From Nymphaea colorata (taxonomy: Eukaryota; Streptophyta; Magnoliopsida; Nymphaeales; Nymphaeaceae): a DNA stretch of 64,000 bases. The stretch is taken from NCBI RefSeq assembly GCF_008831285.2, contig NC_045140.1, positions 20,582,370 to 20,646,369 of the forward strand, in the 5' to 3' direction. The position numbers were made by a program, and so were the translations under genes. This document shows, piece by piece, positions 14,488-52,731 of the stretch (position 1 is its first letter; the number at the start of each line of letters is the position of its first letter). The notes beneath the pieces are model-generated. The model searched no databases, had not been told where the DNA came from, and saw only the letters and a program-made list of their open reading frames with translations.

Positions 14488-15609
14488 TTAGCCTGGATTT
14501 TTTATAATTCTCTGTATGACCACTGTTCTTGCCCGCAATATATCCCTGCTACATCTATCTGCCTGTTGTTCCAGATCTTCGATACTCTTCATAAATGCTG
14601 CCAATCTCTTCTTTATCTCATCAATCCTCAAATTAATTGCATCCTGCCCTGCATTCTCCCGTAGGGAGAAATCAATATTCTGCAATATCGATTCTAGCTC
14701 ATTTTCTAGTTTACCAATGAGGAGACGAATATTGTCAAGATCCTTGATAGCAATATAAGTTCCTGTTTGCATTGAATGGATGAGCTCTTTCTGCCCTTTA
14801 ACAGCATCCTCATAGCGTTTCCATAAAGAATCAACCCATTTCCCCATTGATCCTAAGGGTATCGAAGTAGCAGATGCCAATGCTGCAGCAATAGGAGGAG
14901 CGGACATGGCTGCAGCAACGACTGAACAGATTAAAACAGCTGCCAAGGCAGCCACAAATATAATGGAAGACACTCTTCTCCACACTTTCACTCTTTTTAG
15001 CTTCTTATCAAGCTGGCTCTTCCGTGCCTGCAACTTCTCCAACATCAAAACTTGTTGTGTATAGACAGATTGGAAAAGTTTAAAGAATTCTTCAGTAAAC
15101 GGGCTCTCAGCAGCCCTAAAGCTTCTCAGTTCCTCTAATGTCCTCTGGTACCATCCTTCTTCTGTTTCATGAGACTGCTGTAGAGAGACCTGGATTATCA
15201 ATTGGCTATCTCTGGCACGTTTCAAGCAATTTTCAAGTGATGTGCAGAAATCTAGTGTCTGCAAACTGTTGTCAAAGTACTCCTCAACCAGGTCAAAGAG
15301 ATCTTGACTGTTCCAGATATCCTTTCTACACTCCAAAATCACTTTAACAACCTCTTGATTCATTTCAAGGAGACATCCAGTTATCTCCTTCAGTGAATCA
15401 AAAGAAAGAGCTCTAACCTCAACCCCGTTAGCTATACTATTAATTGCCCGGTTGGTACGCACTTGCAATGTACTATCAAATGTCCGCAGGGTTGGATCAA
15501 GCTGGCAAGCAGCTTCATAAGAATTCAGTTCAGATGCAATGTGTAAATTGCCATTGATCGGAATGTTCTGAGGTGGTTCCCCTCCCCTTTTGCTAAATTG
15601 GCTTCCCAT
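14488..15609 (-). CDS. UPF0496 (DUF677, At14a-like) family protein
   Basis: A single coding exon of 373 residues. The start chosen is the ATG at 15609, giving [10 protein letters not shown], which fits an N-myristoylation signal (Gly2, Ser6, Lys7) and matches the family's usual length; the frame opens 11 codons further upstream without an AUG. Visible features are [19 protein letters not shown] near the N-terminus, the [19 protein letters not shown] block, a long helical stretch, then a basic [11 protein letters not shown] followed by a hydrophobic alanine-rich segment (about residues 220-260, one or two membrane helices) and a C-terminal coiled-coil-like region with heptad-like LIGKLENEL. 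The family is plant-specific and poorly understood; At14a members were described as plasma-membrane and cytoplasmic proteins with integrin-like features. Function here is not inferred further. The frame is intact. Confidence 0.9.
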
Positions 15610-16640
15610 TGAAGCAAAATAGCCTTGTTGCAGCCTCTTCACTCACTGTCAAAACAATTATAAGAGAAAAAAACCATCAGTTTGAAGCTCCTTTGCAGCT
15701 TGGTAAGATAGCAATTTGAATTTAGAAGATGTTCGTTACAAACTAATTGCTTGGTCTTGAAATCACATCCGAAAGAAAAAGGATGTTCTTGAACACCTTT
15801 TCCCCCTTTTCTTTACATAGATTACAAAAGGTTTCAGGAAAAGACCTACACAAAAATCTCAAGCAACATACAACCTAATTCCTGATAATGAGCAACCGTT
15901 CGATGTCAGGTGCTTTTTGAGCTTACTTTCAGTTGAACAACGTCGCCATTTGAAAAAATGCCATAACCTCAATGTTCAATAACTTCACAACCACACCCAC
16001 CACAAAACACCCCCGACACCCACACCCCCCCACCCAACAAAAAAAGAAAAAAAGCCACCAACATCCCAAAAAAAATTGAAAAAACGATTGGGGGGAATGA
16101 CTGAAGAATCATGCAACAGAGTTTTAAAAAAAAAAAATTGTGTATAATTGTTCAATAAATAGATGCCCTATGAAATGGAAGAATCCAAGGACCAAAGCAC
16201 ATTCACAAACCGAAGATCGCGATTCAACCCCCAAAAAAAGCATCGATTAAGGATTAAAAAAACACCTCCAACGTGAATCATGCAAATCCAGAAAAGGGAA
16301 ATTGCAGCTATCACCAGCATAGAGAAATAGGAAAATGAAAGAAGACTTACGAGTCTGTAGAGCTCAAGGCAGATTGGTAATGGAAAGTAGTAGTGCTGAA
16401 AAAATAAAATCAAGATGAGGAAGAAAGCAAATGCAACTTTCAGAGCAATGTGGTAACACAGAGGATGATACGAGAGAGAGAAGGAGATATACAGGAAAGC
16501 AGGCGGTGGAGCTCAGGGAAAAACTTGCACGCATAGAGGAAAAAGAGGAGAGAGAAAAGGGGGAAGGAATGCACGGAAATACCTGAGCAAGCAACTCTTT
16601 CTCTGCCTGCCACCCTCACACTTTTAACGCGGGAAGCAAG
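15610..16640 (-). other. 5' leader of the UPF0496 gene with a likely 5' UTR intron
   Basis: On the minus strand CTC|GTAAGTCTTC at 16351/16350 is a good donor, and TTTTGACAG|TGAGTG at 15646/15645 is a good acceptor 36 bases before the ATG, giving a 705-bp intron. The upstream leader (about 16351-16640) is pyrimidine-rich on the minus strand (CTTTCTCTCTCTCG and similar). The transcription start is not fixed. Confidence 0.6.
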
Positions 16641-20165: not shown

Positions 20166-20543
20166 TAGTTCATCTGTACAGTCCCAACATTATTCCCTTG
20201 GTGTTATAGTGCTGTTATTACTGCTGTATTAACTGTGTAATTGGATAATAGCTCCAATCTACCAAGGAAAGAGAAGGTTCAAAGTTCTTGATCAAGTGCT
20301 GTCTGCTTTGAGAGAACTTGACTGCATGTTGGGTTGCAAATATGATATGGTAAAAGGAAATTGATTAGTATATCTACACATCGTAAATACCATTAAACAT
20401 AGTGTTACTAATCACGTGCAGCATGCTGAATGATTAAGACATACAAACATAGGAAAACAGTCAGACAAATCCAGACATGTCTACTCGAAGACTAGGAACA
20501 CCATTTTTAAACAGAAAGGTAATTACGCAACTAGATACCGTAC

Positions 20544-21094
20544 CTTTTGTTAAACCAAGCTGTTCCAGTGATCTTGTTTTTAGTAAGATAGCTTCAAGCA
20601 AGAGACTCACAGAATGCATAGAGATTGTATTTTTTTGCACCTTCTGGCTTTTAAATCGAGCTTTTTGACGCTGGACCTTATCAGCTATAGATTTAGTCAT
20701 CTTGGGTATCAAACTTTGTATTATCAATCCCACGGAACACCTGGAGAGGAGCAGCATAGTTACCTCTCTGGTACTCCAGCCGTCCCAATAAAGCACGCGC
20801 TTCCTGCACAGGAAAATGAGATTAACGAATATTAAAAACAACCATCTATAGAGCCGTCAAGAGGAAAATAAAGCACCAAGAAGGGGAAGAAAGGCACCTC
20901 ATAGTTCAGTGAGAGGGCTTCCGTCAAAGTAGTTTCAACCTCTTCGACATGATTATCCTCAAACTTGGCATCCCAATCCAAAGTCCTGGAGAAAAGGCCA
21001 CCAGCCGAAAATCTCTCGTCGTTAAAGATTCTGGGGACAGAGGAGGCTCCACCTCCTGAAATTTGAACTGCTCGCCAGAGCATGCACACAACAT
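20544..21094 (-). pseudogene. Truncated NPG1/NPGR-type TPR (calmodulin-binding) gene, pseudogene
   Basis: Exon 1 (21094-20898) starts MLCACSGEQFKF, the hallmark N-terminus of No Pollen Germination-related proteins, and ends VEEVETTLTEALSLNYE. Exon 2 (20803-20544) continues EARALLGRLEYQRGNYAAPLQVFRGID, then ARFKSQKVQKNTISMHSVSLLLEA. The 94-bp intron between them is kept with good GT-AG sites. Exon 1 is 197 nt and changes frame after TTRDF; adding one base would make 198 nt and restore phase. Exon 2 changes frame after GIDNTKF. Family proteins are about 700 residues with many TPRs; nothing past about residue 150 was found, and a copia fossil follows within 400 bp. Intron retention indicates a DNA-level duplicate or a decaying original locus, not a retrocopy. 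Splice-donor-like sites at about 21,900 and 21,732 suggest the old 5' UTR exons also survive. Confidence 0.85.
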
Positions 21095-23266
21095 GATGCT
21101 CGTTCTAAGACTGCTTTCTATTATTGTTCACCCAAAACAACAGTTTGTGACGTTCCTTCAACCATTTCAAGAAGAGAAAGGTGCTGCTTATGTTGTCATG
21201 CACAAACGTCGTTCTGTAAAAGAAGCCTCCCGTCTGGTGAAACAGATTCTGACGAACGCATGGATAATCGGCCTCGAGTTACTTTATTTCCCAACCAAAT
21301 TCAATCAAGGAAGACAGGAACCTTTAGAAGACCAAAATTGAGCAAACAAAGGAGAAAATCCAGAACTGCCACCAAAGGTAAAATCCAGAAACTACCATCC
21401 GACAAATTCAAATTGAATAGACAGGTCCAGACAAACAATCAATCAAAGTAAACGCAAATTTCTCGGAGATCAAAAGAACTAAAAGGACCATCTCCAAGCA
21501 AGCAGCTTGGGAAAAGGAACAAGATACGACAATACTGCATCAAGATGCAGCAAACAGAACGACCACAAATAGAACAGGAACAGGCAGACGAAATCAAGAT
21601 ACATTGTGATCAACTTCTCGCATCGGTCTTCCACTAAATAGACCCAAACAGCGCAACCACCAAGACCAAATCGAAGAATCACCACAAAAACGAAGCGCCA
21701 ACCGAACCAAAACCGAGAAATCCAAGAATACCTGCAATTCACGTCGGTGGCAACGATAAAACAGACGCGCCAAGTCAGAAGAAGGACCAGCAAATCGAGA
21801 TTTCGCGATCACTACGGCAGCGAGAGGAAACAAACAAAAGGATGGCAGCAAGAAGCAGGGAAAACACCAACATTTAAATGATGTGAAATGAAAGACATAC
21901 CACTGAAGGGTGGAATGTCAAGTCCTGGCGAATTGCTTCTTGGGGAACCTCCTCAGCCCCTCCTTGGTTAGTGCTATCGGCGTTCTTGATTTTCTGTTTT
22001 GAACCTTTTTAACTGCAATTCCTCCACGTTGCACATGGTGCGATGATTGCACAAGTTGCCTCCTCAACGGTGGCTGCATGTGACAGTTTTTTCTCTGAAA
22101 AGACAATTATGCTCATATAATAGTTTATAATTCAACATGGTCATTTATGTATTGCTGGAAGCAAGTGTAAAGGCTTGACACATAATTTCAAATTATCACA
22201 TTGGTCAAGATGGGTGTTTTAAGTTTTAATGATCATGTTCTTAACAAGTTTGAGTTGTTCTAGCTCTCATCGGGAAATATAAGTGATTAAGTATTCTTCT
22301 CCTAGCTTATTTATGCAAATCGAACCACATGTTTGTCATTGACTTGGTCATATTTCTTTGAAGCAACTAAAGTTCGTCATATATCTTCAAAGCAGCAACA
22401 TTAACGAAAAGCTTTGGTGGAATAATGAAATGCTTGGGCTCTGACCAAGGTTTGGCTCCGGCTTGGGCTGCGGCTTTGGGTCAAGGTTCGGTCGAAACTA
22501 GGTTCAGTTCTAATGAAGGTTTTGGGAGAGCTTTGGATGGGAAAATGGTTATGGTTACGAAGCGGGTGTTGGCAGGACAGAGATAGAAATTTTTCATAAA
22601 GAGGGTCCAATTAAAGTTTCTAAATTTTGACACGAGCTTAAATATAATTTTTTAAAACATTTATATACGACAAGAAAAAATTTTAACATATAAAAGACCT
22701 CTCAAAGTTTGGAAGAATAATAAATAAATCGATTTTTTGGAAAAAACCGGTTTGAGTTGTGGCCGGTTTTGAGATCCAACAATTTAAAGTTCAAAAGTCC
22801 CATTGTACGTCTATTGTAATCCTTGTCTAAGAATGGGAGGTTGGTTTATTATGGCTTAAGCCTACTGTCTGATGAGGCCTCAAGGTCTTTAAATTTTCTT
22901 GCCTTTGGGGTCGTACGCTGTGTCCGGACTTGGGTGGTAAGGACCCAGCTTCAGCTGGACGAAGTGCACCTCACCTGTAACGGTTTACAAGAGTAGCTGA
23001 TCCAATTCGGCTCATCAAATTTAAGCATTCCTTGGAAAATTCGGCTCATCAAATTTCAAAATCAACTTTGTAAATATTGTTGTTGGCTCGGCATTGGTCT
23101 TCCTGCTGATAGGACATATTAGCTAGTAGATATTGTTACGGATCGGTGCTTGTTACTATTTTTACTTTTTTTTAATAATTTAAATATAATTTGTTCGTAA
23201 TTACTTTAATAAGATAACAAGCAAAAGTTAAATAAACATATTTTTAAGTTTGGAAGGAAAAACAAC

Positions 23267-26156: not shown

Positions 26157-29100
26157 ATGGATGCTGCAGCTTCCAATAAAAGTACATTAAAAAAAGGAGG
26201 TCAAGTATCTAGAGGTTGAGGAACAAGCTTTCTTGTACGTGTGGAGGCTCTGAATCAAAGATTGTTTTACACAACAGCGGTACAGCTGCTTGCGCCTCTA
26301 GCATGCTATTTTTATGCTCTAGGCTCGAGATATTCTCTGTTCTAATTGGTAGCTGATATTCAGGTTTTATGCTTTCACTTGTCTGCAAAATTTTTTGTGT
26401 CTTGAAGTTTTATCTCCTTTTCCAGGTTAGAGGATTTATTTTGCTTTATTTAGTACAATTATGTAGATATTAACAGTTTGCAGATCACCATAACATGGCA
26501 TGGTAGCAGTTACAACTTTCTTTTGCCTTTTAAATGAAGTAAAAGGTTGGTAACCTGTGAAGTTATGCTGCTATAGCTGCTTTCAATCTGAAAATGCTTT
26601 CAGTCGCTTTTGTAGTTATATGAAAGTGTTATTGATTGCAGGTTAATTTTTAAATTTTGCTGCTTGAGTGTTTGTTATTGTTGGTTGTCCATGTATATTA
26701 AGCTTCTGTTGTTTCATGAGCTGTTCATGGTTAATTAGTGACACAACAGCTGGTTTATCGTTGTTAATGCATGACTAATTGTGATAGCTAATAGCAACGA
26801 ATGCATCATTAATTCCGTCATTACTGTTAGTGGCGCCATTCATGATGAAGAGTTGGCATCACTGATGACATTTAGTGAAGCATGTTGTACATCACTAAAT
26901 GCTATTTTCTTGTAGTGAAGTTTAGTAGGTGTTCGACAAGTGCCATATATATTTATAAATTTTGTGCATTTTAATGCAGTTTCTTGAGCATAAATAAACA
27001 TTTTTAAAAACTCTTGTGCACATTTATATACTCATGAAAGGGTTGTGCTTTTTTAGATTTTCATGATTTTTTTTTACCAATGTTTGTGTTACCAACGCCA
27101 AATTTTGTTGATGCTTCATAAACTTCTATAAAGATTTAACTTTTTTTGACCGTTTATTAGAAAGTTAAAATGAATTCATTACATGAATTTTGGCAAATGC
27201 CCTTGTATATTTATGAGCACATAAATAATAACGTTTTTTTGGACTTTCAAGACTTTTTGTTAACGTTTGCAATTTTTTTTTGAAGTTGAATTACTGAATT
27301 TTTTTCTTGATTTGCCATTTATGACTTTCTAGTGTTTTGCAAACTTTTCTTCACAAGTCTTCTAATGTTTTTGCAAATTTTTCGTAAATAAAATGTCATG
27401 ATATATCAACATTTACGACATTTTAAACCCATGATTACATATTATCTTGGATGAAAGTTGCACATTCTTTCTTGAATTTGATATTTTCTTGTCTTTTATA
27501 AAATTTTTCTTAATTTCTCAAATATTTTTTGCGAACCTTTATCGAACAAATGTCATGATTTACCACATGTAACAATGGTTTTAGAAATTTATGGATGTTC
27601 AAATTACTTTTGTCAGGAAACTTATGAGAATGATTCTTAAATGACTTAATTAAATATTTTAATTAACATTCAAGTCTTTGATAAAAGTTTTAAACTTTTT
27701 CCGAATCTTTGTGTGATATTTTATATGGTGTGCACAAGTTTTCTTACATGTTGATACAAACCTAATATTTTACACATTAGATAAGAACACTTATCTAAGT
27801 TTAACAAACACTTATCTAAGTTCAACAATTTTTAAATCAGATAAGACCACTGATCTAAACCCAAAATTAGATTGAAATCTAATGATTTTTGGATCAGATA
27901 AGGCCATGATTCAAGCTTACAAACATATCTTAATTCAACAATTCCTGAATCACATAAGACCAGCGATTTATACCTATGACAAGATAATTCAACAATTTCG
28001 ATACCAGATAAGACCATCGATCTGGTAGCACAGTTGAATCTAAATCTTAGAGTTTGTAAGATAGACAAAACCACTGATCTTAATCCAATAATTCCAGGAT
28101 CACATAAGACCATTGATCCGAAGCCACAGTCATATCCAAGTCAACAATTTGCAGATAAGATAAGACGAGTGATCTTGATACAAACCCAATTTTTTACACA
28201 TTAGTTAAGACCACTTATCTAAGTTCCACAATTTTTTGATCAGATAAGACCACTGATATATACACAAAATTAGATTCAAATCTAAAGATTTTTGGATCAG
28301 ATGTGGCCCCGTCCCGTCCATCAAGTTAAAAATGTCAATTGGATGCAATTGACATAAATGACTAACTGATTGACACAACCAATGCATGGCCAACATGATG
28401 CATCGGTATCATGGTCAGTTTTATGAGGTTATCTATGATCTTCTCGTTATGAGCGCAAAAGATGCAATGAATCTTGTTCAACAAGATGAGAAACAGTCCC
28501 GTGAGACCTGGGAACTGATTAAGGAACTTGATGAAGCAATATCCCTACCATCAAGTTGAAAACAGTCCCGTGAGACCTGGGAAATGTTCAAGGATCTTGA
28601 TGAAGCAGCGTCTCGTCCATCAAGTTAAAAATCTCAATTGGATGCAATTGAAATAAACGACTAACAGATTGACACAACCAATGCATGGCCAACTTGATGC
28701 ATGGTGTAATTGTCAGTTTTAGGATGTTATGTGTGATCGTCTCATTATGAGCGCAAAAGGTACGATGAACCTCGTCCAACAAGGGGTTAAATAGTCCCGT
28801 GAGGCCTCGAAACTGCTCAAGGACCTCGGAACTGATAGACACAACCAATGCATGGCCAACATGATGTATTGGTATAATGGTCTGTTTTAGGAGTTCATGT
28901 GTTATCATCTCATTATGATCTGAAAAAATGCGATGAACCCTTTACTACAATAGAGTAAATAGTCCCGTGAGACCTGGGAAATGTTCAAGGATCTTGATGA
29001 AGCAACGTCCCGTCCATCAAGTTAAAAATATCAATTGGATGCAATTGAAATAAATGACTAACAGATTGACACAACCAATGCATGGCCAACTTGATGCATC

Positions 29101-32100
29101 AGTGTAATTGTCAGTTTTGGAATGTTATGTGTGATCTCATTTTGAGCGCAAAAGATATGATGAACGTCGTCCGACATGGCGTTAAACAGTCCCGTGAGAC
29201 ATGGTAACTGCTCAAGGATATTGTTGAAGCAACGTCTCCTCCATCAAGTTAAAAATGTCATTTGGATGAAATTGGAATGACAGACCGATTGACACAACCA
29301 ATGCATGGCCAACATGATGCATCGGTATCATGGTCAGTTTCATGAGGTTATCTATGATCTTCTCGTTATGAGCGTAAAAGATGCGATAAACCTTGTTCAC
29401 AAGATGAGAAACAGTCCCGTGAGACCAGGGAACTAATCAAGGAAGTTGATGAAGCAATATCCCTACGATCTAGTTGAAAATAGTCCCGTGAGACCTGGGA
29501 AATGTTCATGGATCTTGATGAAGCAACGTCGCAATCGCCAAGTTAAAAATCTCAATTGGATGCAAATGAAATAAATGACTAACAGATTGACACAACCAAT
29601 GCATGGCCAACTGGATGCACGGTATAATTGTCAGTTTTAGGATGTTATGTGTGATCGTATCGTTATGAGCGCAAAAGGTACGATGAACCTCGTCCAACAA
29701 GGGGTTAAATAGTCCTGTGAGGCCTCGGAACTGCTCAAGGACCTCGGAACTGATAGACACAACCAATGCATGGCCAACTTGATGTATTGGTATAATGGTT
29801 CGTTTTAGGAGTTTATGTGTGATCATCTCATTAGGATCCGAAAAGATGCGATGAACCCTCTACTACAATAGAGTAAATAGTCCCGTGAGACCTGGGAAAT
29901 GTTCAAGGATCTTGATGAAGCAACGTCCCGTCCATCAAGTTAAAAATATCAATTGGATGCAATTGAAATAAATGACTAACGGATAGACACAACCAATGCA
30001 TGGCCAACTTGATGCATCAGTGTAATTGTCAGTTTTGGGATGTTATGTGTGATCTCATTTTGAGCGCAAAAGATATGATGAACGTCGTCCGACATGGCGT
30101 TAAACAGTCCCGTGAGACATGGTAACTGCTCAAGGATATTGTTGAAGCAACGTCTCCTCCATCAAGTTAAAAATGTCATTTGGATGAAATTGGAATGACA
30201 GACCGATTGACACAACCAATGCATGGCCAACATGATGCATCGGTATCATGGTCAGTTTTATGAGGTTATCTATGATCTTCTCGTTATGAGCGCAAAAGAT
30301 GCGATAAACCTTGTTCACAAGATGGGAAACAGTCCCGTGAGACCATGGAACTGATCAAGGAAGTTGATGAAGCAATATCCCAACCATCAAGTTGAAAATA
30401 GTCCCGTGAGTCCAGGAAAATGTTCAAGGATCTTGATGAAGCAATGTCACGTCCGTCAAGTTAAAAATCTCAATTGGATGCAAATGAAATAAACGACTAA
30501 CAGATTGACACAACCAATGCATGGCCAACTTGATGCATGGTGTAATTGTCAGCTTTAGGATGTTATGTGTGTTCGTCCCATTATGAGCGCAAAAGGTACG
30601 ATGAACCTCGTCTAACAAGAGGTTAAATAGTCCCGTGAGACCTCGGAACTGCACAAGGACCTCAGAACTGATAGACACAACCAATGCATGGCCAACTTGA
30701 TGTATTGGTATAATGGTCCGTTGCGTCCGTCAAGTTTATGTGTGATCATCTCATTAAGATCTCAAAAGATGCGATGAACCCTCTACCACAAGAGAGTAAA
30801 TAGTCCCGTGAGACCTGGGAAATGTTCAAGGATCTTGATGAAGCAACGTTCCATCCATCAAGTTAAAAATATCAATTGAATGCAATTGATATAAATGACT
30901 GACAGATTGACACAACCAATGCATGGTCAACTTGATGCATCGGTGTAATTGTCAGTTTTAGGATGTTATGTGTGATCTCATTTTGAGCGCAAATGATATG
31001 ATGAATGTTGTCCCACATGGGGTTAAACAGTCCTGTTAGACCTGGGAACTGCTCAACGTTTTTGTTGAAGCAACGTCTCCTCCATCAAGTTAAAAATGTC
31101 AATTGGATGAAATTGAAATAAATCATTGACAAATTAAAAGAACCAATGCATGACAAACTTGATGCTTCGATATAATGGTTAGTTTTAGTATGTTATGCGT
31201 GATTGTCTAATTATGAGCACAAAAGATACTATGAACCTCGTACAACAAGGGGGTAAGGAGTCCCGTGAGACCTGGGAACTGCTCAAGGATCTTGATGAAG
31301 CTGCATCCTTTCCATCGAGTGAAAAATGTCAATTGGAATGACGGACGACTGATTGGCACAACCTATGCATGGCCAACATGATGCGTTGGTGTCATGGTCA
31401 GTTTTATAAGGTTATCTATGATCTTCTTATTATGAGCGCAAAAGATGCGATGAGCCATGTTCAACAAGATGGGAAACAGTCCCGTGAGACCAGGGAACTA
31501 ATCAAGGAAGTTGATGAAGCAATATCCCTACCATCTAGTTGAAAATAGTCCCGTGAGACCTGGGAAATGTTCATGGATCTTGATGAAGCAACGTCGCAAC
31601 CGCCAAGTTAAAAATCTCAATTGGATGCAAATGAAATAAATGACTAACAGATTGACACAACCAATGCATGGCCAACTTGATGCACGGTGTAATTGTCAGT
31701 TTTAGGATGTTATGTGTGATCGTATCGTTATGAGCGCAAAAGGTACGATGAACCTCGTCCAACAAGGGGTTAAATAGTCCTGTGAGGCCTCGGAACTGAT
31801 AGACACAACCAATGCATGGCCAACTTGATGTATTGGTATAATGGTCCATTTTAGGAGTTTATGTATGATCATCTCATTAGGATCCGAAAAGATGCGATGA
31901 ACCCTCTACTACAATAGAGTAAATAGTCCCGTGAGACCTGGGAAATGTTCAAGGATCTTGATGAAGCAACGTCCCGTCCATCAAGTTAAAAATATCAATT
32001 GGATGCAATTGAAATAAATGACTAACGGATTGACACAACCAATGCATGGCCAACTTGATGCATCAGTGTAATTGTCAGTTTTGGGATGTTATGTGTGATC

Positions 32101-33397
32101 TCATTTTGAGCGCAAAAGATATGATGAACGTCGTCCGACATGGCGTTAAACAGTCCCGTGAGACATGGTAACTGCTCAAGGATATTGTTGAAGCAACGTC
32201 TCCTCCATCAAGTTAAAAATGTCATTTGGATGAAATTGGAATGACAGACCGATTGACACAACCAATGCATGGCCAACATGATGCATCGGTATCATGGTCA
32301 GTTTTATGAGGTTATCTATGATCTTCTCGTTATGAGCGCAAAAGATGCGATAAACCTTGTTCACAAGATGGGAAACATTCCCGTGAGACCAGGGAACCCT
32401 TGTTAGCGATGGCTAACGCTTGGTCTTTTAATCTTTTGTAGATTGTTATTTAATTTTTTATTTATTTTTTAACGTTCCTCAAGAAAAGTAATTTCTTTTC
32501 ACTGGTTGTTTAATTGTGTGGGAATTTTTCAAATTTTCTACGACTTCTTTTTATAGTTTATGAGAATGTATTACTAAATGACTATTCAATGCGTTGTGAG
32601 CCTTTCATGGCTTTGATAAGATATTGGAATTTTTTTCTCAAATCTTTAGTTTGAATTTGTATGTCTTGCCAAAAGTTATAGATTTTGGAAAGTTGATTTT
32701 TTAGTTATTTATTATAAAAGTAGCGAAAACTCTTTTGACTCTTGTGCATATTTATGTGCTCATGAAAACAATTGGATGCGTGAATGATTCTGTAGACATG
32801 AAATTGGAAACGACATGAGCACGTTCTTGTATTACTTTGTTATCATGTATTAAAACTTACTTTCTATTTAATGTTATGTCAACAGCTTTTTTGATAGAGT
32901 TTTTACTTATTTCCTTCTTTCTGAATAGTGATAAACATTTTTCAGCTTGTTCTTGTTTCTCACATTTAGTGTCATATTGGACTCTTTGTGACCATGTTAT
33001 CAACACACTCTTTTCTCATTGGTTCCTTTGTCTCTTATGCTCAAATATGTGCATGAGTGTTGGTTTTAGTTCAGTCCTATGGAACTTTCCTTCTGCTGTT
33101 GAGTTTTATGAACACATGTATCTTCACCAAATTGTCTATGTTTTCTAGGGCAATGACATTTTCATCAATTTTCCTATGCCCTAGATTAGAATACATATGT
33201 TTTAGTTCACTATGTTTTAGATTAATGTACAAGAGAAGGAAAAAAAAAGGTTAAAAACCATGACAGCTGAAGTTACTAAAATCTCCTCTATAAACAGGAA
33301 GTTTTGGACTCCGAAACTCTGCTTTTACAAATATTAGGGGTGCTAGGAAGGCTCAACAGGAGGCTATAGTTCTAAGGAATTCAGGACTCACTCATTG
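26157..33397 (+). CDS. Candidate exons of an unrecognised gene (partial model)
   Basis: Exon A (26157-26214) follows a good acceptor (TTATTCTTCTAG) and starts at once with ATG: MDAAASNKSTLKKGGQVSR plus one base, then AGAG|GTTGAG. Exon B (33298-33397) follows ATAAACAG and in the matching phase reads GSFGLRNSAFTNIRGARKAQ, QEAIVLRNS. Phase 1 to phase 2 fits, and the composition (basic, charged, no stop) is protein-like. The intron between them would be about 7.1 kb and would contain the CACTA terminus and the whole satellite array. The 5' UTR exon near 23.5 kb fits as exon 1. The donor of exon B is uncertain (33397/33398 GTTTAT or an earlier site), and I could not connect it in phase to the candidate at 34048. 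The family is not recognised. Short exons can arise by chance, hence the low confidence. Confidence 0.35.
26740..26917. mobile_element. CACTA (En/Spm-like) transposon terminus, orphan
   Basis: Bases 26904-26917 read attttcttgtagtg, the reverse complement of CACTACAAGAAAAT, the well-known terminal inverted repeat of plant CACTA elements. The 170 bases before it carry subterminal-style repeats (catcactgatg, catcactaaatg, gtcattactg). The element should extend to lower coordinates, but no matching CACTACAAG end was found upstream, so this is a fragment or a truncated non-autonomous copy. No transposase sequence was seen. Confidence 0.6.
27750..28310. repeat. Short-period repeat block (gataagaccactgatct motif)
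   Basis: The motif gataagaccactgatct or a close variant recurs about every 45-60 bp (near 27782, 27840, 27896, 27956, 28005, 28103, 28158, 28205, 28243). In addition, about 150 bp at 27751-27905 (tgatacaaacctaat ... ggatcagataaggcc) recurs as a diverged direct copy at 28171-28309. The second copy runs straight into the satellite array. Confidence 0.85.
28309..32398. repeat. Satellite array with higher-order repeats (about 229-bp monomers, 918-bp higher-order unit)
   Basis: About 18 monomers, each with cacaaccaatgcatggcc or a close variant. The landmark agtcccgtgag (or variant) lies at 28495, 28564, 28793, 28961, 29188, 29413, 29482, 29711, 29879, 30106, 30331, 30400, 30629, 30802, 31029, 31259, 31478, 31547, 31776, 31925, 32152 and 32377. 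The spacing pattern 69, 229, 168, 227, 225 (sum 918) occurs twice exactly, from 28495 and from 29413. The third round is 69, 229, 173, 227 and then carries one extra monomer (230, 219), and the fourth is 69, 229, 149, 227, 225. Equivalent monomers in successive units are nearly identical, while neighbouring monomers differ much more. The array ends abruptly inside a monomer near 32,398. Minus-strand frames of 62-106 codons recur with the same period and are by-products of the repeat. Confidence 0.95.
32399..33297. other. AT-rich right flank of the satellite array
   Basis: No gene. The stretch around 32739 (gactcttgtgcatatttatg) resembles the left flank around 27010 (aactcttgtgcacatttata), so related AT-rich sequence lies on both sides of the array. 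Confidence 0.5.
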
Positions 33398-34047
33398 GTT
33401 TATCTTTTGCTTTTTGTTTGACATATTTGGTTGCTTTGTCTTGGCCATTGTTTTTGGGTCATACAAGGCTCCTTACTTATTATGAAGCTGTCCTTCGGTA
33501 AGTACAGTTCCTATTATTTTATCTCCTTTTCTACTTATTATCACATTTCGCTTTTGTTAATTTTTCCTTGTCATTTTTCTTTCTTCAGTAGATGTTTTAT
33601 AATTATATCCTGTCTTTTTGTTTCCTGGCATTTAACTTTGTACTTACCCTTGTTATGTGGATCCAAGATTGTGTGCAATGTCCTTGCTGGAGGACCGGTT
33701 ATATTTAAGCATCAACTATGTTTTGTGTGGTTCAACAAAAATAATGTTTTGCTGATTAGGGCTAGGTTATCACTTAAGCTGGTGTTAGTGTGGTAAAAAA
33801 AAACAAACACGCTCTCAGGTGTTAGTTTGATGAAAGACCTAAAATGTTCTCAAGTAAAATCAATTTTAAGTTTATTAATTTGTATTGATCTCTACAAACG
33901 TACATATTTGGTTGCTTTATACAAAAATTTACTTTTGTTTTTAGCTGTATCGAAACTAGCTGTATTTCAAATATCTTTGGCTTTTTGTGTTTCTGAAATT
34001 TTCATTGCTATATTCAATGGCAGCATTTGCTCTCCACGCATCTGCAG

Positions 34048-34208
34048 GAAATTGAATCCCTTCGCTCTGTTATTCCTAAGTCACTATTGCGTGTTTTGTC
34101 TGCCGCATGCAAGGCATTGTTTGATCGATGCTGCATTTCCTTATTCCTTATAAGGTCGTGCATCGTGGAACTCTTGGATGAGAATAAACACCTTGTGTGC
34201 TCACAGGT
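34048..34208 (+). CDS. Possible exon of an unrecognised gene
   Basis: After the acceptor-like CATCTGCAG the frame reads EIESLRSVIPKSLLRVLSAA, CKALFDR and continues to VELLDENKHLVCSQ before a donor-like ACAG|GTACTC at 34208/34209. It is helical and protein-like in composition. The family is unknown to me. It could belong to the candidate gene at 26157-33397, but the reading phase I inferred there does not join directly, so a missing exon or another donor would be needed. Confidence 0.25.
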
Positions 34209-37018
34209 ACTCTTCTATCTCTACTTTCTATGGAATGTCCGGAACGAGATTGAGTTGCGTGCACGAAAACAAAGTGGAGGTATTTTTGAAATCTTTCTAT
34301 TAAGTAGAGGACATTTTAGACTTTTTCTTTTTAAATACTTTTTTATCCTTGTGAGTAGTTTTTTTTTTTAATTTTAATGGGCATTTTGGCCATTGCATAC
34401 CCCACAGGGGTGTGCACGTAAATAGGTTCACTGAATTTTCCCAACCTACCATTTTTTTTCTAGATTCTGTAAATTTAGCACTGTAGGTAGCTTTGAAACT
34501 ATTTTGAAGATTATCAAAAGCGACATGAGTAGTTGTAGACTGTAAAAGAAAGGAAACTGATCAAATCTCAGTCAGTATTCTGCTGCTCGAGAAAGTGCTG
34601 GTAGTACTACTACTAACTTTTGATTTAAGGATAAGTAAGTAGCTCAACCATTTTAGGTGCCTAAGATGAACCTTCTACTTGTTATAACGCATCAAATCCA
34701 TCTAAATCTTGTTTGATGGTGCACCGACCGCACCGACCACAGCTTATGCTCATTTTTTTGTTAGTGTATATGGGGTTTACTTCAGCGCTCTTTTCATGAG
34801 GCAAGTCCATTCTGGCCAAAGGTTCGTTCATAAGATATAAATATGGGTCAGCTCGTCGTGTCTCCTTCAGAAAGTCTGAATGTGGTTTAGAGAAGTTAAC
34901 TGGGGTCATAAACTTGAGAAGTTCGTAGAGCAGTCTCGTTTACTAGGCCTGCGAGCCGATCACTGAAGCATCTTTTGAGGAAGTGATAGATCTATACTAT
35001 ATCTAAATATTGCATATGTGCTTAAGCGATTGTCACAGAAAATGCATTCAATTTTTGAAGGAAAAGTGTTTTATTTGTGAAATATGAAGCCCAAAAAATT
35101 GCAAAAAAGAAAAATCCGTCTTTTTAAAAGATTCTAAAACAAAAATAAGGCCAAAAAATATGTTTCTTTGGTGTTTTGTTTGGGCGTCTTTTGCATTTTT
35201 ATACTTTTTAAAAATTTTGCCGATTTTTTTTAGAGATTTATGTGAGAAAAATAACTTTGGCGTATCATTAGAGAAAGACCTTTTACATTTCTTAAATGAT
35301 ATTTATGAGAATTAATTTGCAATTTGTGAGAAGAATCTTTGTTCCGGAGAGGCGTAGTTCACTTTCTCAAACTAGCCAAAATGAGAGAAGAGTAATTTTT
35401 TTTTTATAGGGATCGCATCTTTTCCCAACCATGGGTAATAACAGCAAGTATGTTTTGTGGGTATGCCAAACTTTTAAAAAAATGGAATTGTATGTTATAA
35501 TGCTCTATTCTGATTTTGTCTTATTATAGATCTCCTATAAATTAATCAGTATTACCTTGACACTGTTTTGGTTGTGTAACAAAGTACACGAAAGTCCGAA
35601 CTTGAACTCTAGAGCTCCATTTGTGTTTAAGGGAATGTTCGATTACCAACTGTCTTAAAGTCACAAATTTTAGGTGGCAAAAGATGGATCGTGGTGCAAC
35701 AAGCTAAGGATCTGTTGGCTAAAAGTGATTATTTTATATTGGCAAACTTAATGTAAGGTAGAAAAAGAAGAGTCTGATCTCAAATTCATTTCTCACATCT
35801 AAATAATGGGGTTTCAGTTAGATGTAAGTTTGATTTAACATGTTTCTCTTTGGAGTTTCTTGAATAATCCAAGTTTAAAGTTGGACTACAATTAAATATT
35901 GTTAAAACAAAGTGATACAAGATATTGAGTCCATCCGGCTGCTGGATGTTACCAGATGCATCCTTTAGTGTCTGCCCTCAGTTCGTAGCTAGCGGGCCTC
36001 ATCTTCTTGGTTGTCGCACTAATAGATTTCTTACATTTTTTTATTTTTGTGAGAACTGGGACTGGTTATCGGTTCTGCTCCTCAGATGGGTCATGAATTT
36101 AGGTGGACTACTATGCATGTTTCATTATATTGTTAGAACTCATGTTATACATGATAATCATCAAATTTTCAAGAGAAAATTGAAATATTTAAACGTATTC
36201 ATATAATGGCGGTGAGTTAGTGATCATTAATCGTGAGTTTTTATTAATAAGAATCTTTCTTTTGCTGCCCCGACGCTTATGTTTGAAAAATATATGTACG
36301 GAAAACATGAACTCCATTTAAGGGAATATCTTTTCAAGTCTTTTTGTTGATGGTAAACAACAATAATTAAATAACATCTTTGTTGTGTTCAAGTGGGCAA
36401 CTGCCTACGGTAGGCCACATTTAGCTTCTCCCAACTGAGGGGTGTAGCACAATTGGTTGACGAGGTGGTTTACTTCAAAGGTGATTTGTGTTACAATTAT
36501 GCCTCAAGACAGCAACACATCCTATTATCATCGTCACAAACAATGCGTTTCTTTTGAAAAAAATCACACACAATAAATAAGTCAGATGTTTAAAACTTTT
36601 AAAATTCCCGTTTTCTAAAAATGGCAAAACAAGAAAATTTCCAAAAAAAAAACGTGCTTTTTACGTTTTTTCCCTTTTTTTGTCTTACTATTTTTTTTCA
36701 AAATTTTTAATGCCAAACTCCTTGTTTTCTTTTTTTTAAAAAATTTTTTTATTTGTTGCAGACTTCAATGTTTTGTATGTTTGTGTTATTAGTTTTTCAA
36801 TTATTTCGATTTTTATGTTATTTTATTTTATATTTTAAAAAATTAATCGTATTTTTTAGGCTTTTTCATGCTCGTCATATTATGCCTACCAAGAACTTAG
36901 TCTTGTGAGAAAGTATTTTGTGACCACCCCTAACATTAAAAAAAAACATTATCAAATGAAATAGACAAACAAATTGTATTGGGTGAATTCACATGTAAAT
37001 AAGCAATTTTATGGGACT

Positions 37019-37038
37019 GTGTGGGCAGTTGCCCACAC
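37019..37038. repeat. Dispersed palindrome copy (GTGTGGGCAGTTGCCCACAC)
   Basis: Same family as 18337-18354, with one changed base pair at the centre. Confidence 0.7.
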
Positions 37039-38382
37039 ATGCCCACGTGTATCTCTACCTTTGCTTACTCTTGCTGAGCAGGTGAATTTGACAAATAGAC
37101 ATTTTAATTCACATGAAACTGCACGCAGAAGTCATCTATTGGTCTAGCAATTTGAGTGATTTACGTTCAATAGTCACATGAATGTATTCCCTGTTGACGT
37201 CCTTTTATTTTAACAGAACTTCCCATTGTCATATGCAAGTAATCTCTTGAACTCTCCAAAGCAGCATTAAGGTCCCTTGATACTGCATCAGCCAACCCAA
37301 GACTATAAGCCACTTCTGGGTTCTCTCTCTCAATCATGGCCTCTCTTCAAGACAGCCAGCCTTCTTCCACAATACAGGAAGCGATTACTGTGCCGTATGG
37401 AACATCTCCTGTAATTTGCAGTCTCCAAAAACACCAACAGGCAAGCCTTTAAGGTAATGCATCTTTGACTGTGTCCAGGATAGAATTGCACTACTCGGCA
37501 GCCTCTGTCAAATCACAAACAGAAGGTGAGTCTTCTATGGTTCACATTCATTGAATTCTGAAATCAACTTACCCAAAAGAAAAAAGAAAAAGCAAAACGT
37601 GTGAAGTTTATAGAAAACAAAAACTGAGAAAGAGAACAAAAACATGCTTACAAGCATTCATAGGAATTGTCAACATATTTATTACCACATGAAATTTTGA
37701 AGTTAGGCAATATATAATCAATTTGTTCGTTTAACTCTAATAGTAACGTTCTTTTACAACGGAAGAAAGTTGAAACTGTCTAGACCGTAAAAGGTTACAT
37801 GAAAAGAAGGAGAAAAGCATTTATTTGAAGCGTCAGTATAAAAAATGCAATAAAGAGGAAAAGATATGGAAAGAGAAGCAAGCCGCAAAAAAGGAAAAAA
37901 AGCCTCCTTACACGTGTATGTACTGCTCCGCATTTGAATCACCACACAATTGATCAATGTCAAATTATCAATGTGCGATGAAAGCACATTCGATGGCAGA
38001 GTCGGAAACTTTTGGCCAAGACGGACTAACTCAAAAAATGTTGAACCCTTCAAATATATAGTAAAATGATTGAAAGATTGCGTGGTGATCTAGGGGAAGA
38101 AAATTTAATTCAATCTGGTAAGGGTCATTTTATATAGAAAATCTGAATATGATTAGCAATTGAATCCAAATTTATGTAAGAACCCGCTACCAAATTCAAC
38201 AGAAATACAAATCTAATTTTATGCAAGAATTACAAATTCAGTTTTGCATTTTGTGTATATGAATTTGAGTTCTACTCGGAAAGTTTTTTGAACATGACGA
38301 TTTCATCAATAGAAGCGCATCATTATCACGTCCTTTCATAAGCCTAGTGACGTCAGGTAGGGGCCGGGGTAGGTGTTGGTAC

Positions 38383-48892: not shown

Positions 48893-49576
48893 ATGGCGGC
48901 AAATGAGGGAGAACTGCCGGATTCCCTCTCTTCCCGCCCCAGGAGGTGGATATCTCTAATCGATTCACTCCATCCTTGTAAGTTGTTTTCGGAATTCCAT
49001 CGATTTATTCCTGTTTCTCGTTCTCATTCCGCGTGACCTAGGGCCTTTAGATAATCAAATATTGGATCTCCTCCTCCAATGAGATGATCTTCGCGGTTTG
49101 TGCAGATTTTCGGAATTGTTCCCTGGGGTTCTTGGTTGAACGCCCCTGGTTGTATGAGATTTCTGCTTCCTATCCAGGAAACCTTCTTGATTATTTTGTT
49201 CGATGTGGAATTGAGTTTCCATGGTCGGTACAAGCCCGTTCACTTAATGTCATCTCGATTTTCGGTGGTCGGTGATGCTAAGATTAGGATATGGTTCTCA
49301 GATGGGAGTTTAACCTTCGAGATTGTTTTTGTTCAACGTGGTATTGAGTCTCCACGGTAGGTAGGAGCCCTCTCACCTAACCGCGATCGTGGTTCCCGTG
49401 GTCATTGATCCTGAGATTAGGGTTATGGTTCCTGGGTGGGATTTTCTTCAGGATCGTCGGGTTTACCTTGCTATGTTACTGTAGGATGTGGAGTACGAAA
49501 CTGTGTAGAAAAGTGTTATGCTAGACCGGTTAGAGGTTCATATTTAACAGTTTTAATTATTTCCGTAATTCTCGAA
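48893..49576 (+). promoter_or_regulatory. Leader of the PPR gene with 5' UTR intron and short upstream reading frame
   Basis: An ATG at 48893 opens MAANEGELPDSL and runs 28 codons plus one base to a donor CATCCTT|GTAAGT (48977/48978). Candidate acceptors are TTCTTCAG at 49450-49451 and TTACTGTAG at 49483-49484. Joined to either, the frame closes at once with TGA. So this is best read as an upstream ORF in a spliced leader, not the N-terminus of the PPR protein. Confidence 0.5.
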
Positions 49577-52500
49577 ATGAGTGGTACTGTATTCGTAGTT
49601 CGAAGGCTCTTTAGTGCTTGTGCTTCTGTTTCAACGGAACGATCACGCTTTCTGCGGCAATTTAGGCACAAGAGGCTGGATGAATCACGAAAGAAAGAAC
49701 TCGGAATGTCTAAGTTGAGTATGAAAGAGAAGGAGGTGAAACCCATAGTTTACATGAGGACCATCATTGTAGGAGTATCAAGAATTCTTAGATATTCGAC
49801 GTGGGAATCTGCAAAGGAAGAGCTGGAGAAGCTTTGCTTGAAATGGGATTCATACACAATTAATCAGGTTCTCAAAACGCACCCACCTATGGAGAAAGCT
49901 TGGCTCTTCTTCAATTGGTGCTCACAGCTCAAAGGGTTTAAGCACGACCAATTCACGTACACGACGATGCTGGATATATTTGGGGAGGCAGGAAGGATTG
50001 AAACTATGAAACAACTGTTTCATCAGATGGCCGAAAAAAGATTGAGGATTGACGCGGTTACATATACTTCGGTCCTGCATTGGCTCTCAAAGTATGGCGA
50101 CATTGAAGGGGCGTTAAATATATGGAAGAAGATGAAATCTGAGGGTTGTTTGCCGACTGTTGTGTCGTATACGGCGCTGATGAAGGTCCTTTTCGACAAT
50201 GGCAGGCCAAAGGAAGCAGCTGCAGTATATAAGGAGATGATCGAAGCTGGCTGCTCTCCTAATTGCTATACATATACCATTTTAGTCGAATATCTGGCTG
50301 GGTCCGGTGAGCTTCGTTATGACACTTTCTTAGTTTCTTGGATTTGTGGTTTACTATATAATTCTCAAAAATCGTACGTGTGTATAGTTTGTTGCTAACA
50401 GTCATGCTATGAATTGCTTGCATTTATCTCTTATTATCTACGTTGTGAGACTAGCGACAGATTCCTGTACAGTTACTCGGAAGCTTGCAATGCTCTTCAG
50501 GTAACAGGTCAGACTCGCAGTCCAGGACTACCAAAACACGATGAGCTAGCGATCTGAGCCCTGCCAGGTTGAAACGTGAAAGATAAGACTTATCCATTCA
50601 TCTTGAACTGATGAAATGAAAGAACTAAAGTTCTCCAAAATAGTGATCGGAAAACAGCAAATTGGGTCATTTAGGACAACTACAAAGAATGTAGTTTTTC
50701 ATCCTATTTTGCTCAGATTAAAACCCTCTATGGTTTTCGTGCAGTCCCAATGGATGCATTTCTGGTGCGGGATTGTTGAATTCTTATGTTTAGTTTGTGT
50801 AAGTAAAATATCTTCCACTATATCTGCTCTAGTCTCGAATGTTCCTGATGGAGACTTCAGCTGTAGCTGTTGTTTCCATGCCCCTTTTAATTGTAAACTT
50901 GAATAACTATTATCTTTGTTTATCATCTGGTAATGCAAAATGTCATTTCTCCTTTGTAATTGTAGGTGGTTGTTGAAAGAACAAGGCACAAAAAATGGTC
51001 TTTGGACTTGATATCTATAGGAATATAGACATGCAAATTGGATTATCTTTTACTATTGTGGATTCTATAGCTGTTACTTACATGTTGTGCTGGGGTTGTG
51101 CAGGTCCATGCTTATGCATGTATTTTTCATGTGTTTGCATGTTGATGAATGTAAATGTGCATGTATGCATTCATGTAGGTAATGCACGTCTGAACATGCC
51201 ATTTATTTTTCTTTCTATTTTTATATTGAAAATCAATTAAGTTATTTTCTGCAATATTTCCACACTACCAGTATTTAAAGTTCATCTGCTTCTGTCACTT
51301 TCCATTTGGAAGTGGTGGTAGATAATACTATTTCAGTTACCATTTTTTTACTTTTAGGTAGACTAGTTGCTCCATCTTATTGGCCATTTTGATGTCTGAT
51401 GCATTCACATTGAAGCATATCTGAGAGTTTTTCCAAGTTGTTCACACGTCAAAGCTATGTCAACAGATAGTTTCACTTGGCTTTCACATCCTGCATTGAC
51501 ACTAATTTTTTGGACACAGAGATACCTGAAAACACAGAAAAACTCATTATGTATACCGTATGATGACTTATCATTAGCACCAAGAATTTGCACATCCCTT
51601 TTCTAGTGCTTCTCCTGGCTGTTTGGTTTTTGCCTGCATCTGCACCACTTAAAAATTAGTGTATTCGGATAGCTAGTGTGCTTACACGAGCTTTATTTGT
51701 TCAGAATTTTATTTTAATTCAATATTTTAATGTATATAGGTAAATTCAAGGAGGCATTTGACATCTTATGCAAAATGCAAGATGCTGGGGTACAGCCTGA
51801 CAAGGTTACTTGCAATATTCTTGTCCATAAATGTTCAATAGCAAGGGAAATGTTTGTTCTGATTCAAACTCTTCAGTATATGAAAGAAAATTCACTTGTT
51901 CTTCGTCGACCCATGTATTTGGAAGCATTGGAGGCTTTGAGAAGTTGTGGTCAAAATGATGAACTGTTAAATGAAGTCAATCCCCATTTCTGCCATGAAG
52001 GCTTTGATGATTGTAGATGGGATCTTTCTCCAGACCCTCAGCATTATGCAGACAGGGGAGTTCTTATAAACTTAGTGGCAAAAAAGAGTTTTGTTGCAGC
52101 TGAGTATTTACTTGAGGGGATGATGGAGAAGAATATCCAGTTCGACACTAAGCTTGTCAGCTCTATGGTGATGGATTTCTGTTCAAACCATCATCCATCT
52201 GGTGCTTTGGTGGTGTTGAAATATAGCTCAACATCTGGCTTGCAGCTTGAAAGGGATGCATATATCTGTATGATTGGGCTTTTTATTAGATTGAGTTTAT
52301 ATGGAAAGGTAATGGTAGTTACTGAAGAGATGCTTAGAAAGGGTGTTCATTTTGGAACATATCTTGTAGCTCTTCTGATTTATCAGTTTGGATGTGCTGG
52401 AATGCCTGATTTGTCTGAAAGGCTTTTTTATGCATTACCTTGTGAACAGAACACTGCTACTTATACCGCTCTGATGGATGCATTTGTTAAATCTGGAGAT

Positions 52501-52731
52501 TTTGACAAAGCTCTTACTCTATATAAAAAAATGAGCAAAGAACGGGTTCCTATCACATCTGGAACTCTTCAAGTTCTGCAGGTTGGTCTAGAAGGCCCTG
52601 TCTGGTCCCATGGCAATGGAATCTACAGACAACTGCAAAAATTGTTGCCGGATCATGGTCACCTGCAAGATAATATTCTGTGGGAGCAAAGACTCTGCAA
52701 TGTATTATTTGATAATGCTGGTAACCGATAA
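49577..52731 (+). CDS. Pentatricopeptide repeat (PPR) protein, At2g01390/EMB3111-like, 2 coding exons
   Basis: Exons 49577-50306 and 51740-52731, joined in phase across TCCG|GTGAGC and TATATAG|GTAAA, give 573 residues; the Arabidopsis homologue as I recall it is of similar length. The start is the ATG at 49577 because it yields MSGTVFVVRRLFSACASV, a plausible mitochondrial presequence; the frame also opens further upstream (ATG 49436) but with no targeting character. The signature KTHPPMEKAWLFFNWCSQLK precedes P-class PPR motifs of 35 residues from about residue 126: FTYTTMLDIFGEAGRIETMK, VTYTSVLHWLSKYGDIEGAL, VSYTALMKVLFDNGRPKEAA, YTYTILVEYLAGSGKFKEAF (spans the intron), then more diverged repeats and TATYTALMDAFVKSGDFDKA near the end. 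No E/DYW tail. P-class PPR proteins bind organellar RNA for stability, splicing or translation; the homologue was reported as embryo-essential. The RNA target cannot be read here. The frame is intact. Confidence 0.93.

What the first reader, a model, noticed from the sequence alone, without database searches (positions are those of the whole stretch)
28309..32398. Satellite array with true higher-order structure in a gene-bearing region
Landmark spacings of 69, 229, 168, 227 and 225 bp recur as a block of 918 bp: twice exactly, once with a 5-bp change plus an extra monomer, once with a shortened 149-bp step. Equivalent monomers in successive blocks are nearly identical, for example 29,212-29,400, 30,130-30,318 and 32,176-32,364, while adjacent monomers are much more diverged. 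This is higher-order repeat organisation, known mainly from centromeric satellites, and it implies recent block-wise amplification. The truncated 69- and 168-bp monomers are frozen parts of the block. Finding it in a 4-kb array among ordinary genes is unusual.
Basis: seen in the sequence. Interest (0 to 1): 0.75.

Follow-up and report, generated by a model that had tools for sequence, protein, structure and literature searches.

The report
Satellite array with higher-order repeats
A 4-kilobase stretch of repeated plant DNA is organised in repeating blocks of distinct units, as centromere satellites often are, and related arrays elsewhere in the same genome use the same pool of units in different block orders, which makes it a useful natural series for studying how such block structure arises.

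Summary
Window 28309-32398 is a head-to-tail array of a ~230-bp monomer with true higher-order repeat (HOR) structure: same-class monomers in different blocks average 94.5% identity, different classes 80.3%. Its '69-bp monomer' is really a step inside a 299-bp hybrid of two monomer classes; its '168-bp' monomer lacks about 62 bp.

The array is not alone. The window's genome (407.8 Mb, fits Nymphaea colorata) shows about 99 kb of this family in the stretches I fetched, on chromosome-size contigs C3, C5, C9 and three small contigs. Flanks on both sides of the window array belong to a dispersed, in places tandem, duplicated unit. All 12 arrays with at least 8 monomers have HORs, of five kinds: (DG)n, (FEE)n, (ACGD)n, (BDAC)n and the window's A*GIJ, built from related monomer classes.

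Best reading: unequal exchange and conversion within a dispersed, apparently non-coding unit produced different HORs at different copies. I found no sign of protein coding or rDNA; a centromere role could not be tested. A new satellite family of a known kind.

The parts
28309..32398 (+). 230-bp satellite array with HOR (.A.GIJA.GIJA.GIJMA.GIJA); strand given as that of the monomer model
   Evidence: spacing; nhmmer pieces; classes. The blast-merged extent is 28293-32398
28372..29290 (+). HOR block 1
29291..30208 (+). HOR block 2
30209..31138 (+). HOR block 3, the most diverged
31139..31355 (+). extra monomer (class M, single)
31356..32254 (+). HOR block 4, with the 149-bp step
32255..32397 (+). 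start of a fifth block, cut off at the right junction
28372..28669 (+). first hybrid monomer A* (299-bp step): head of class A (model 1-190) joined to tail of class I (model 120-229); others at 29291, 30209, 31356
   Evidence: model coordinates; head 94.2% to A and 81.0% to I, tail 95.4% to I and 81.7% to A
28671..28837 (+). first shortened G monomer (168-bp step, model stops at ~159); others at 29589, 30507, 31654
27748..28308 (+). diverged remnant of a second tandem repeat ('B'), made of ~39-bp units in other copies
   Evidence: matches; 39-bp period in L032 and L031 and ~390-bp period in L028
20300..27795 (.). left part of the dispersed unit (homology in pieces; true left end not found)
32397..37600 (.). 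right part of the dispersed unit (homology in pieces; true right end not found)
32397..32398 (.). sharp right junction; in the other copies fetched here a stretch lies to its left that the window lacks
   Evidence: 4 of 4 copies fetched across it

Best explanation
A satellite family of ~230-bp monomers sits inside a dispersed, partly tandem duplicated, apparently non-coding unit of at least 17 kb. The monomers belong to classes about 80% identical to each other (A, B, C, D, E, F, G, I, J), related classes recurring at different copies. Because neighbouring monomers are too unlike to recombine well while equivalent monomers one block away are 92-100% alike, unequal exchange and gene conversion keep working at block length. 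In different copies this fixed different blocks. In the window two out-of-register joins went into the block: an A/I hybrid (+69 bp) and a G monomer short of 62 bp, so 299+168+~230+~223 gives 918 bp. A deletion later brought the array directly against the right flank. Shown: structure, classes, shared flanks, hybrid. Inferred: exchange as the mechanism, order of events, the deletion.
For: HOR in 12 of 12 arrays with at least 8 monomer pieces (not independent, see against). Lag identities: C3a 96.2% at four monomers against 80.3% at one, 83 pieces; C5 95.9% at two against 77.9%, 61 pieces; C9a first part 94.8% at three against 82.2%. Class strings. Shared flanks. Window class A monomers are 90.5-93.7% identical to class A elsewhere and window G 88.5-91.7% to G on C3, so A and G are older than the split of the copies. 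Hybrid monomer; the 69-bp step was seen in the window array only, among the ten fetched regions scanned. Uneven identity along block pairs, from 89 to 100% per 100 bp in blocks 2-4, as exchange or conversion tracts would leave.
Against: Mechanism is inferred: no reads, no individuals, no crossover data. The 12 arrays are not 12 independent cases: six have the BDAC kind and three the F/E kind, and their flanks are often 99% identical copies, so there are five kinds. The F/E arrays outside C9a are irregular. The fetched part of the C3:20.03-Mb array (7 pieces) shows no HOR, 79.9-81.6% at lags 1-4. Window block 3 is about 8% off the others, so part of the HOR may be as old as the dispersal. Copy C12 is in the array-bearing clade of the flank tree but has no 230-bp monomer in 21.5 kb.
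Confidence: 0.8

Rival explanations
1. The HORs are made elsewhere (a large centromeric or other heterochromatic array missing from the assembly) and pieces are exported to the arms, for instance as circular DNA reinserted.
For: Arrays run into contig ends and gaps: C9 ends inside an array at its last base, C29 begins and ends in one, N runs occur in two of the fetched stretches. So much array may be missing.
Against: Arrays come with the same flanking unit rather than in random places. The window's block was seen nowhere else in what I fetched.
Confidence: 0.12
2. The array is an internal tandem repeat of a transposable element (as in Ogre-type LTR retrotransposons) that spread by transposition.
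For: Dispersed unit with arrays at corresponding places. Vondrak et al. (PMC7004042, passages seen) report satellites arising from tandem repeats in Ogre elements.
Against: 29 open stretches from the unit and its surroundings, one of them given twice, gave no Pfam family at its curated cut-off; no long direct repeats flank the array in the window's self-comparison with the array masked. The unit occurs tandemly, for example three copies 10.8 kb apart at C3:20.07-20.10 Mb, which looks like segmental duplication.
Confidence: 0.12
3. The monomer is a coding exon: a 36-codon frame runs through it.
For: The frame has no internal stop in 6 of 10 class consensuses.
Against: Diversity by codon position is 0.166, 0.175, 0.189, third-position excess p = 0.33, same as outside the frame (0.166); 4 of 10 classes carry stops; no Pfam match for two peptides of it.
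Confidence: 0.02
4. The blocks are an assembly artefact.
For: No reads were available.
Against: Blocks differ by 2-9% with block-specific indels; no N in the window; other loci show other, equally regular HORs.
Confidence: 0.03

Closest known systems
Alpha-satellite-type higher-order repeats of centromeres (recalled)
   Same: Diverged monomers fixed in multimers, with different multimers at different places from related monomer types.
   Different: Short arrays (4-19 kb seen) tied to a dispersed duplicated unit; no centromere evidence; about 0.02% of the assembly seen.
Euchromatic or dispersed satellite arrays (Tribolium castaneum, PMC5844308; review PMC10048060; listing and abstract start only)
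   Same: Satellite sequence in arms near genes.
   Different: I did not read whether those arrays carry locus-specific HORs.
Retrotransposon-derived satellites of Lathyrus sativus (PMC7004042, passages)
   Same: Short arrays embedded in a dispersed unit; the passages also report HOR patterns that differ between arrays of one satellite (FabTR-2).
   Different: No retrotransposon domains found here; FabTR-2 is not one of that paper's Ogre-derived satellites.
Nymphaea minuta 'Cen-42' tandem repeat (PMC13254204, passages)
   Same: Tandem repeat in the likely host genus.
   Different: The name suggests a 42-bp unit; no sequence was available to compare with the 230-bp or the 39-bp repeat.

Membership tests
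Satellite DNA with HOR organisation | head-to-tail tandem monomers of one family | tested here: met
   23 pieces, one strand
Satellite DNA with HOR organisation | equivalent monomers of different blocks more alike than neighbours | tested here: met
   94.5% against 80.3%; lag 5 is 0.894 against 0.786 at lag 1
Satellite DNA with HOR organisation | HOR specific to locus | tested here: met
   five kinds at different loci, though six arrays share one kind
Centromeric satellite | CENH3 association or centromere position | not testable with these tools
   no ChIP, FISH or centromere map
Centromeric satellite | megabase-scale abundance | tested here: inconclusive
   about 99 kb in fetched stretches, a lower bound; arrays end at gaps and contig ends
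LTR-retrotransposon tandem repeat (Ogre type) | gag-pol domains beside the array | tested here: inconclusive
   selected open stretches only, no family at cut-off
LTR-retrotransposon tandem repeat (Ogre type) | array between two long terminal direct repeats | tested here: not met
   none in the window's self-comparison; other copies not tested for it
rDNA intergenic-spacer repeat | rRNA genes in the unit | tested here: not met
   Rfam: one tRNA-Asp in the window, none in 42,000 of 45,085 bases of contig C29
Protein-coding repeat | third codon positions more variable | tested here: not met
   p = 0.33

The most novel reading that the evidence does not exclude
The genome holds a natural replicate experiment in HOR birth outside centromeres: one ancestral pool of monomer classes inside a duplicated unit was turned, at different copies, into at least five different HORs (2-, 3-, 4- and 4/5-mers and a hybrid-bearing block). 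HOR formation would then be an intrinsic outcome of exchange in arrays of ~20%-diverged monomers and need no kinetochore.
Probability: 0.5. Interest if true: 0.6.

Novelty: new member of a known kind. Interest (0 to 1): 0.45.

Why it matters
HORs are best known from centromeres, where arrays are huge and hard to assemble, and where one cannot easily separate recombination from selection by the kinetochore. Here arrays of a few to about 20 kb, on recognisable flanks of measurable age, carry different HORs made of the same classes. If the loci prove non-centromeric, models of HOR origin can be tested on small, spannable arrays.

Tried and rejected
Looked for: terminal inverted repeats around the array (23 weak pairs, none convincing); long direct repeats (none flanking the array); rRNA or other RNA; protein domains (one search identified ordinary genes in 5 of 10 window stretches: DUF677, MCU, two PPR, polyprenyl synthetase; nothing at cut-off in 29 entries); solved structures for one open stretch, 33997-34368 (none). 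That stretch occurs only three times in the genome and is interrupted by stops in the two other copies, so I do not call it a gene. Considered and dropped: coding repeat, rDNA spacer. An apparent A* junction in five other loci at up to 5 mismatches was inspected in two of them, C200 and C29, and is an ordinary monomer there. Papers on Nymphaea satellites: searches listed nothing describing this repeat; only the top rows were shown. HOR literature: searches, listings only, apart from PMC7004042, PMC7015852 and PMC13254204 (passages).

Full report
What was checked. The array shifted by 918 bp matches itself at 0.555 of positions without gaps; stretches elsewhere in the window give a mean of 0.262 and a maximum of 0.284. 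With a monomer model built from a regular array on C3 (230 positions), the window array falls into 23 pieces on one strand. Lag identities for the window are 0.786 at one piece and 0.894 at five. Same-class pairs average 94.5%, different-class pairs 80.3%; the classes were made by clustering, so the regular order .A.GIJA.GIJA.GIJMA.GIJA and the spacing are the independent evidence. Order shuffles reached the window's periodicity in 4 of 2000 trials, weaker than the 0 of 2000 for each of three other arrays because the window pieces are cut unevenly and few.

Anatomy of the block. The 69-bp step is not a monomer. The stretch 28372-28669 covers model positions 1-190 and then 120-229: its head is 94.2% identical to class A and 81.0% to I, its tail 95.4% to I and 81.7% to A. 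The tails of the other three blocks are 91.7-92.7% to I. So a 299-bp A/I hybrid was formed once, with a few shared A bases at the join, and was then multiplied with the block. The next monomer (G) stops near model position 159 and is about 62 bp short. 299, 168, about 230 and about 223 add up to 918, close to four full monomers by coincidence of a gain and a loss.

The genome. The window lies at G000:C3:20582370-20646369 of a 407,766,735-base, 783-contig assembly. The monomer search gave 208 matches, a lower bound from 39 of 669 candidates scored, on C3, C9, C29, C200 and C453 in the rows shown. Fetched stretches add C5 and another array at C3:20.03 Mb. Array extents in the fetched DNA sum to about 99 kb, roughly 0.02% of the assembly. 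The small contigs C29, C200 and C453 have flanks about 99% identical to each other and to C9, so they may be redundant or unplaced copies.

Five HORs. C3:1595001-1613807 is (ACGD)n: 83 pieces, 96.2% at lag four against 80.3% at lag one, with one A scored as the near-identical F. C5:2350725-2363999 is (DG)n: 61 pieces, 95.9% at lag two against 77.9% at lag one. C9:11504001-11510048 is (FEE)n, 94.8% at lag three against 82.2%. C9:11510149-11515688, C9:24955206-24963261, C200, C453 and both ends of C29 are BDAC with BBDAC or other variants. Two further C9 arrays mix F and E in threes and fours. The window is A*GIJ. All 12 arrays with at least 8 pieces peak at a lag above one, but six share one kind and three another. 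Against the reading: the fetched 7 pieces of the C3:20.03-Mb array show no HOR.

The surroundings. The left flank (26216-27407) has 58 matches, the right flank (32399-33600) 38, and the pieces 20300-22700 and 35400-37600 have 59 and 46, some of the last from more widespread short repeats. Left and right flank often recur near each other: C1, C2, C5 (twice), C6, C9, C10, C12. In one distant copy, C5:4.473 Mb, pieces matching window 27088 and 32579 lie 36 bp apart with no 230-bp array between them (no monomer). A tree of 602 flank columns and 11 copies puts that copy and C6 apart from nine others with full support; eight of the nine carry the array and C12 does not. Relations within the nine are mostly unresolved. 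At C3:20.07-20.10 Mb the unit's left part recurs at 10.8-kb steps, with window 37.2-37.6 kb lying next to window 20.3-22.1 kb at the middle copy, so the unit can be tandem. I found no end of the unit, no transposon feature and no domain at cut-off in 29 entries.

A second repeat. Between left flank and array lies 27748-28308, a decayed tandem repeat. Its relatives have a plain 39-bp period on C5 and C6 and a ~390-bp period on C12. So tandem amplification, in one case with a longer multiple period, happened in this unit with two different sequences.

Right junction. In 4 of 4 copies fetched across it the right flank starts at window 32392-32397; those copies share with each other DNA to the left of it that the window lacks. 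I infer a deletion in the window copy.

Mechanism and timing. Monomer classes A and G recur at other loci at 88-94% identity while classes differ by about 20%, so these classes are older than the copies. The best nearest matches for I and J elsewhere are only 86-88%, so their kinship is less clear. Blocks inside the window are 91-98% alike. Blocks 1, 2 and 4 share J monomers at 99.5-100%, so part of the amplification is recent; block 3 is about as old as the dispersal or older. Unequal exchange and conversion at block length explain this and the hybrid monomer; that step is inferred.

Verdict. HOR satellites and arm-located satellites are known kinds; this family seems undescribed as far as searches 24, 42 and 98 can say. 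The possible value is comparative: several HOR kinds from related classes in small arrays.

Noticed in passing
window 27748-28308; L032:302-1992; L031:3219-5484; L028:5557-8499: A second tandem repeat of 39-bp units in the same dispersed unit; on C12 it has a period near 390 bp, as if ten units had become a block.
   Followed up: partly
L021 (G000:C9:25174001-25178754): The C9 contig ends at its last base inside a 230-bp array, so the true array there is longer or the chromosome end is unresolved.
   Followed up: no
L024, L025, L026, L014 (G000:C29:14641-35550): Contig C29 has array at both ends and, between them, a stretch of about 8.1 kb repeated directly about three times at 98-99% identity.
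   Followed up: no
G000:C2:15791057-15807463: Eight pieces of the left flank recur at about 2.26-kb steps, an apparent tandem array made from part of the unit itself.
   Followed up: no
window 28447-28557 and equivalents: The monomer contains a 36-codon frame, open in 6 of 10 class consensuses but without codon-position bias.
   Followed up: yes
window 33997-34368: An open stretch with a protein-like look occurs three times in the genome, interrupted by stops in the two other copies; no Pfam or PDB match.
   Followed up: partly
window 14488-15642, 49421-52728, 62951-63478, 5-787, 2440-2511: Ordinary neighbours: DUF677, PPR, mitochondrial calcium uniporter and polyprenyl synthetase genes, and a tRNA-Asp.
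   Followed up: yes
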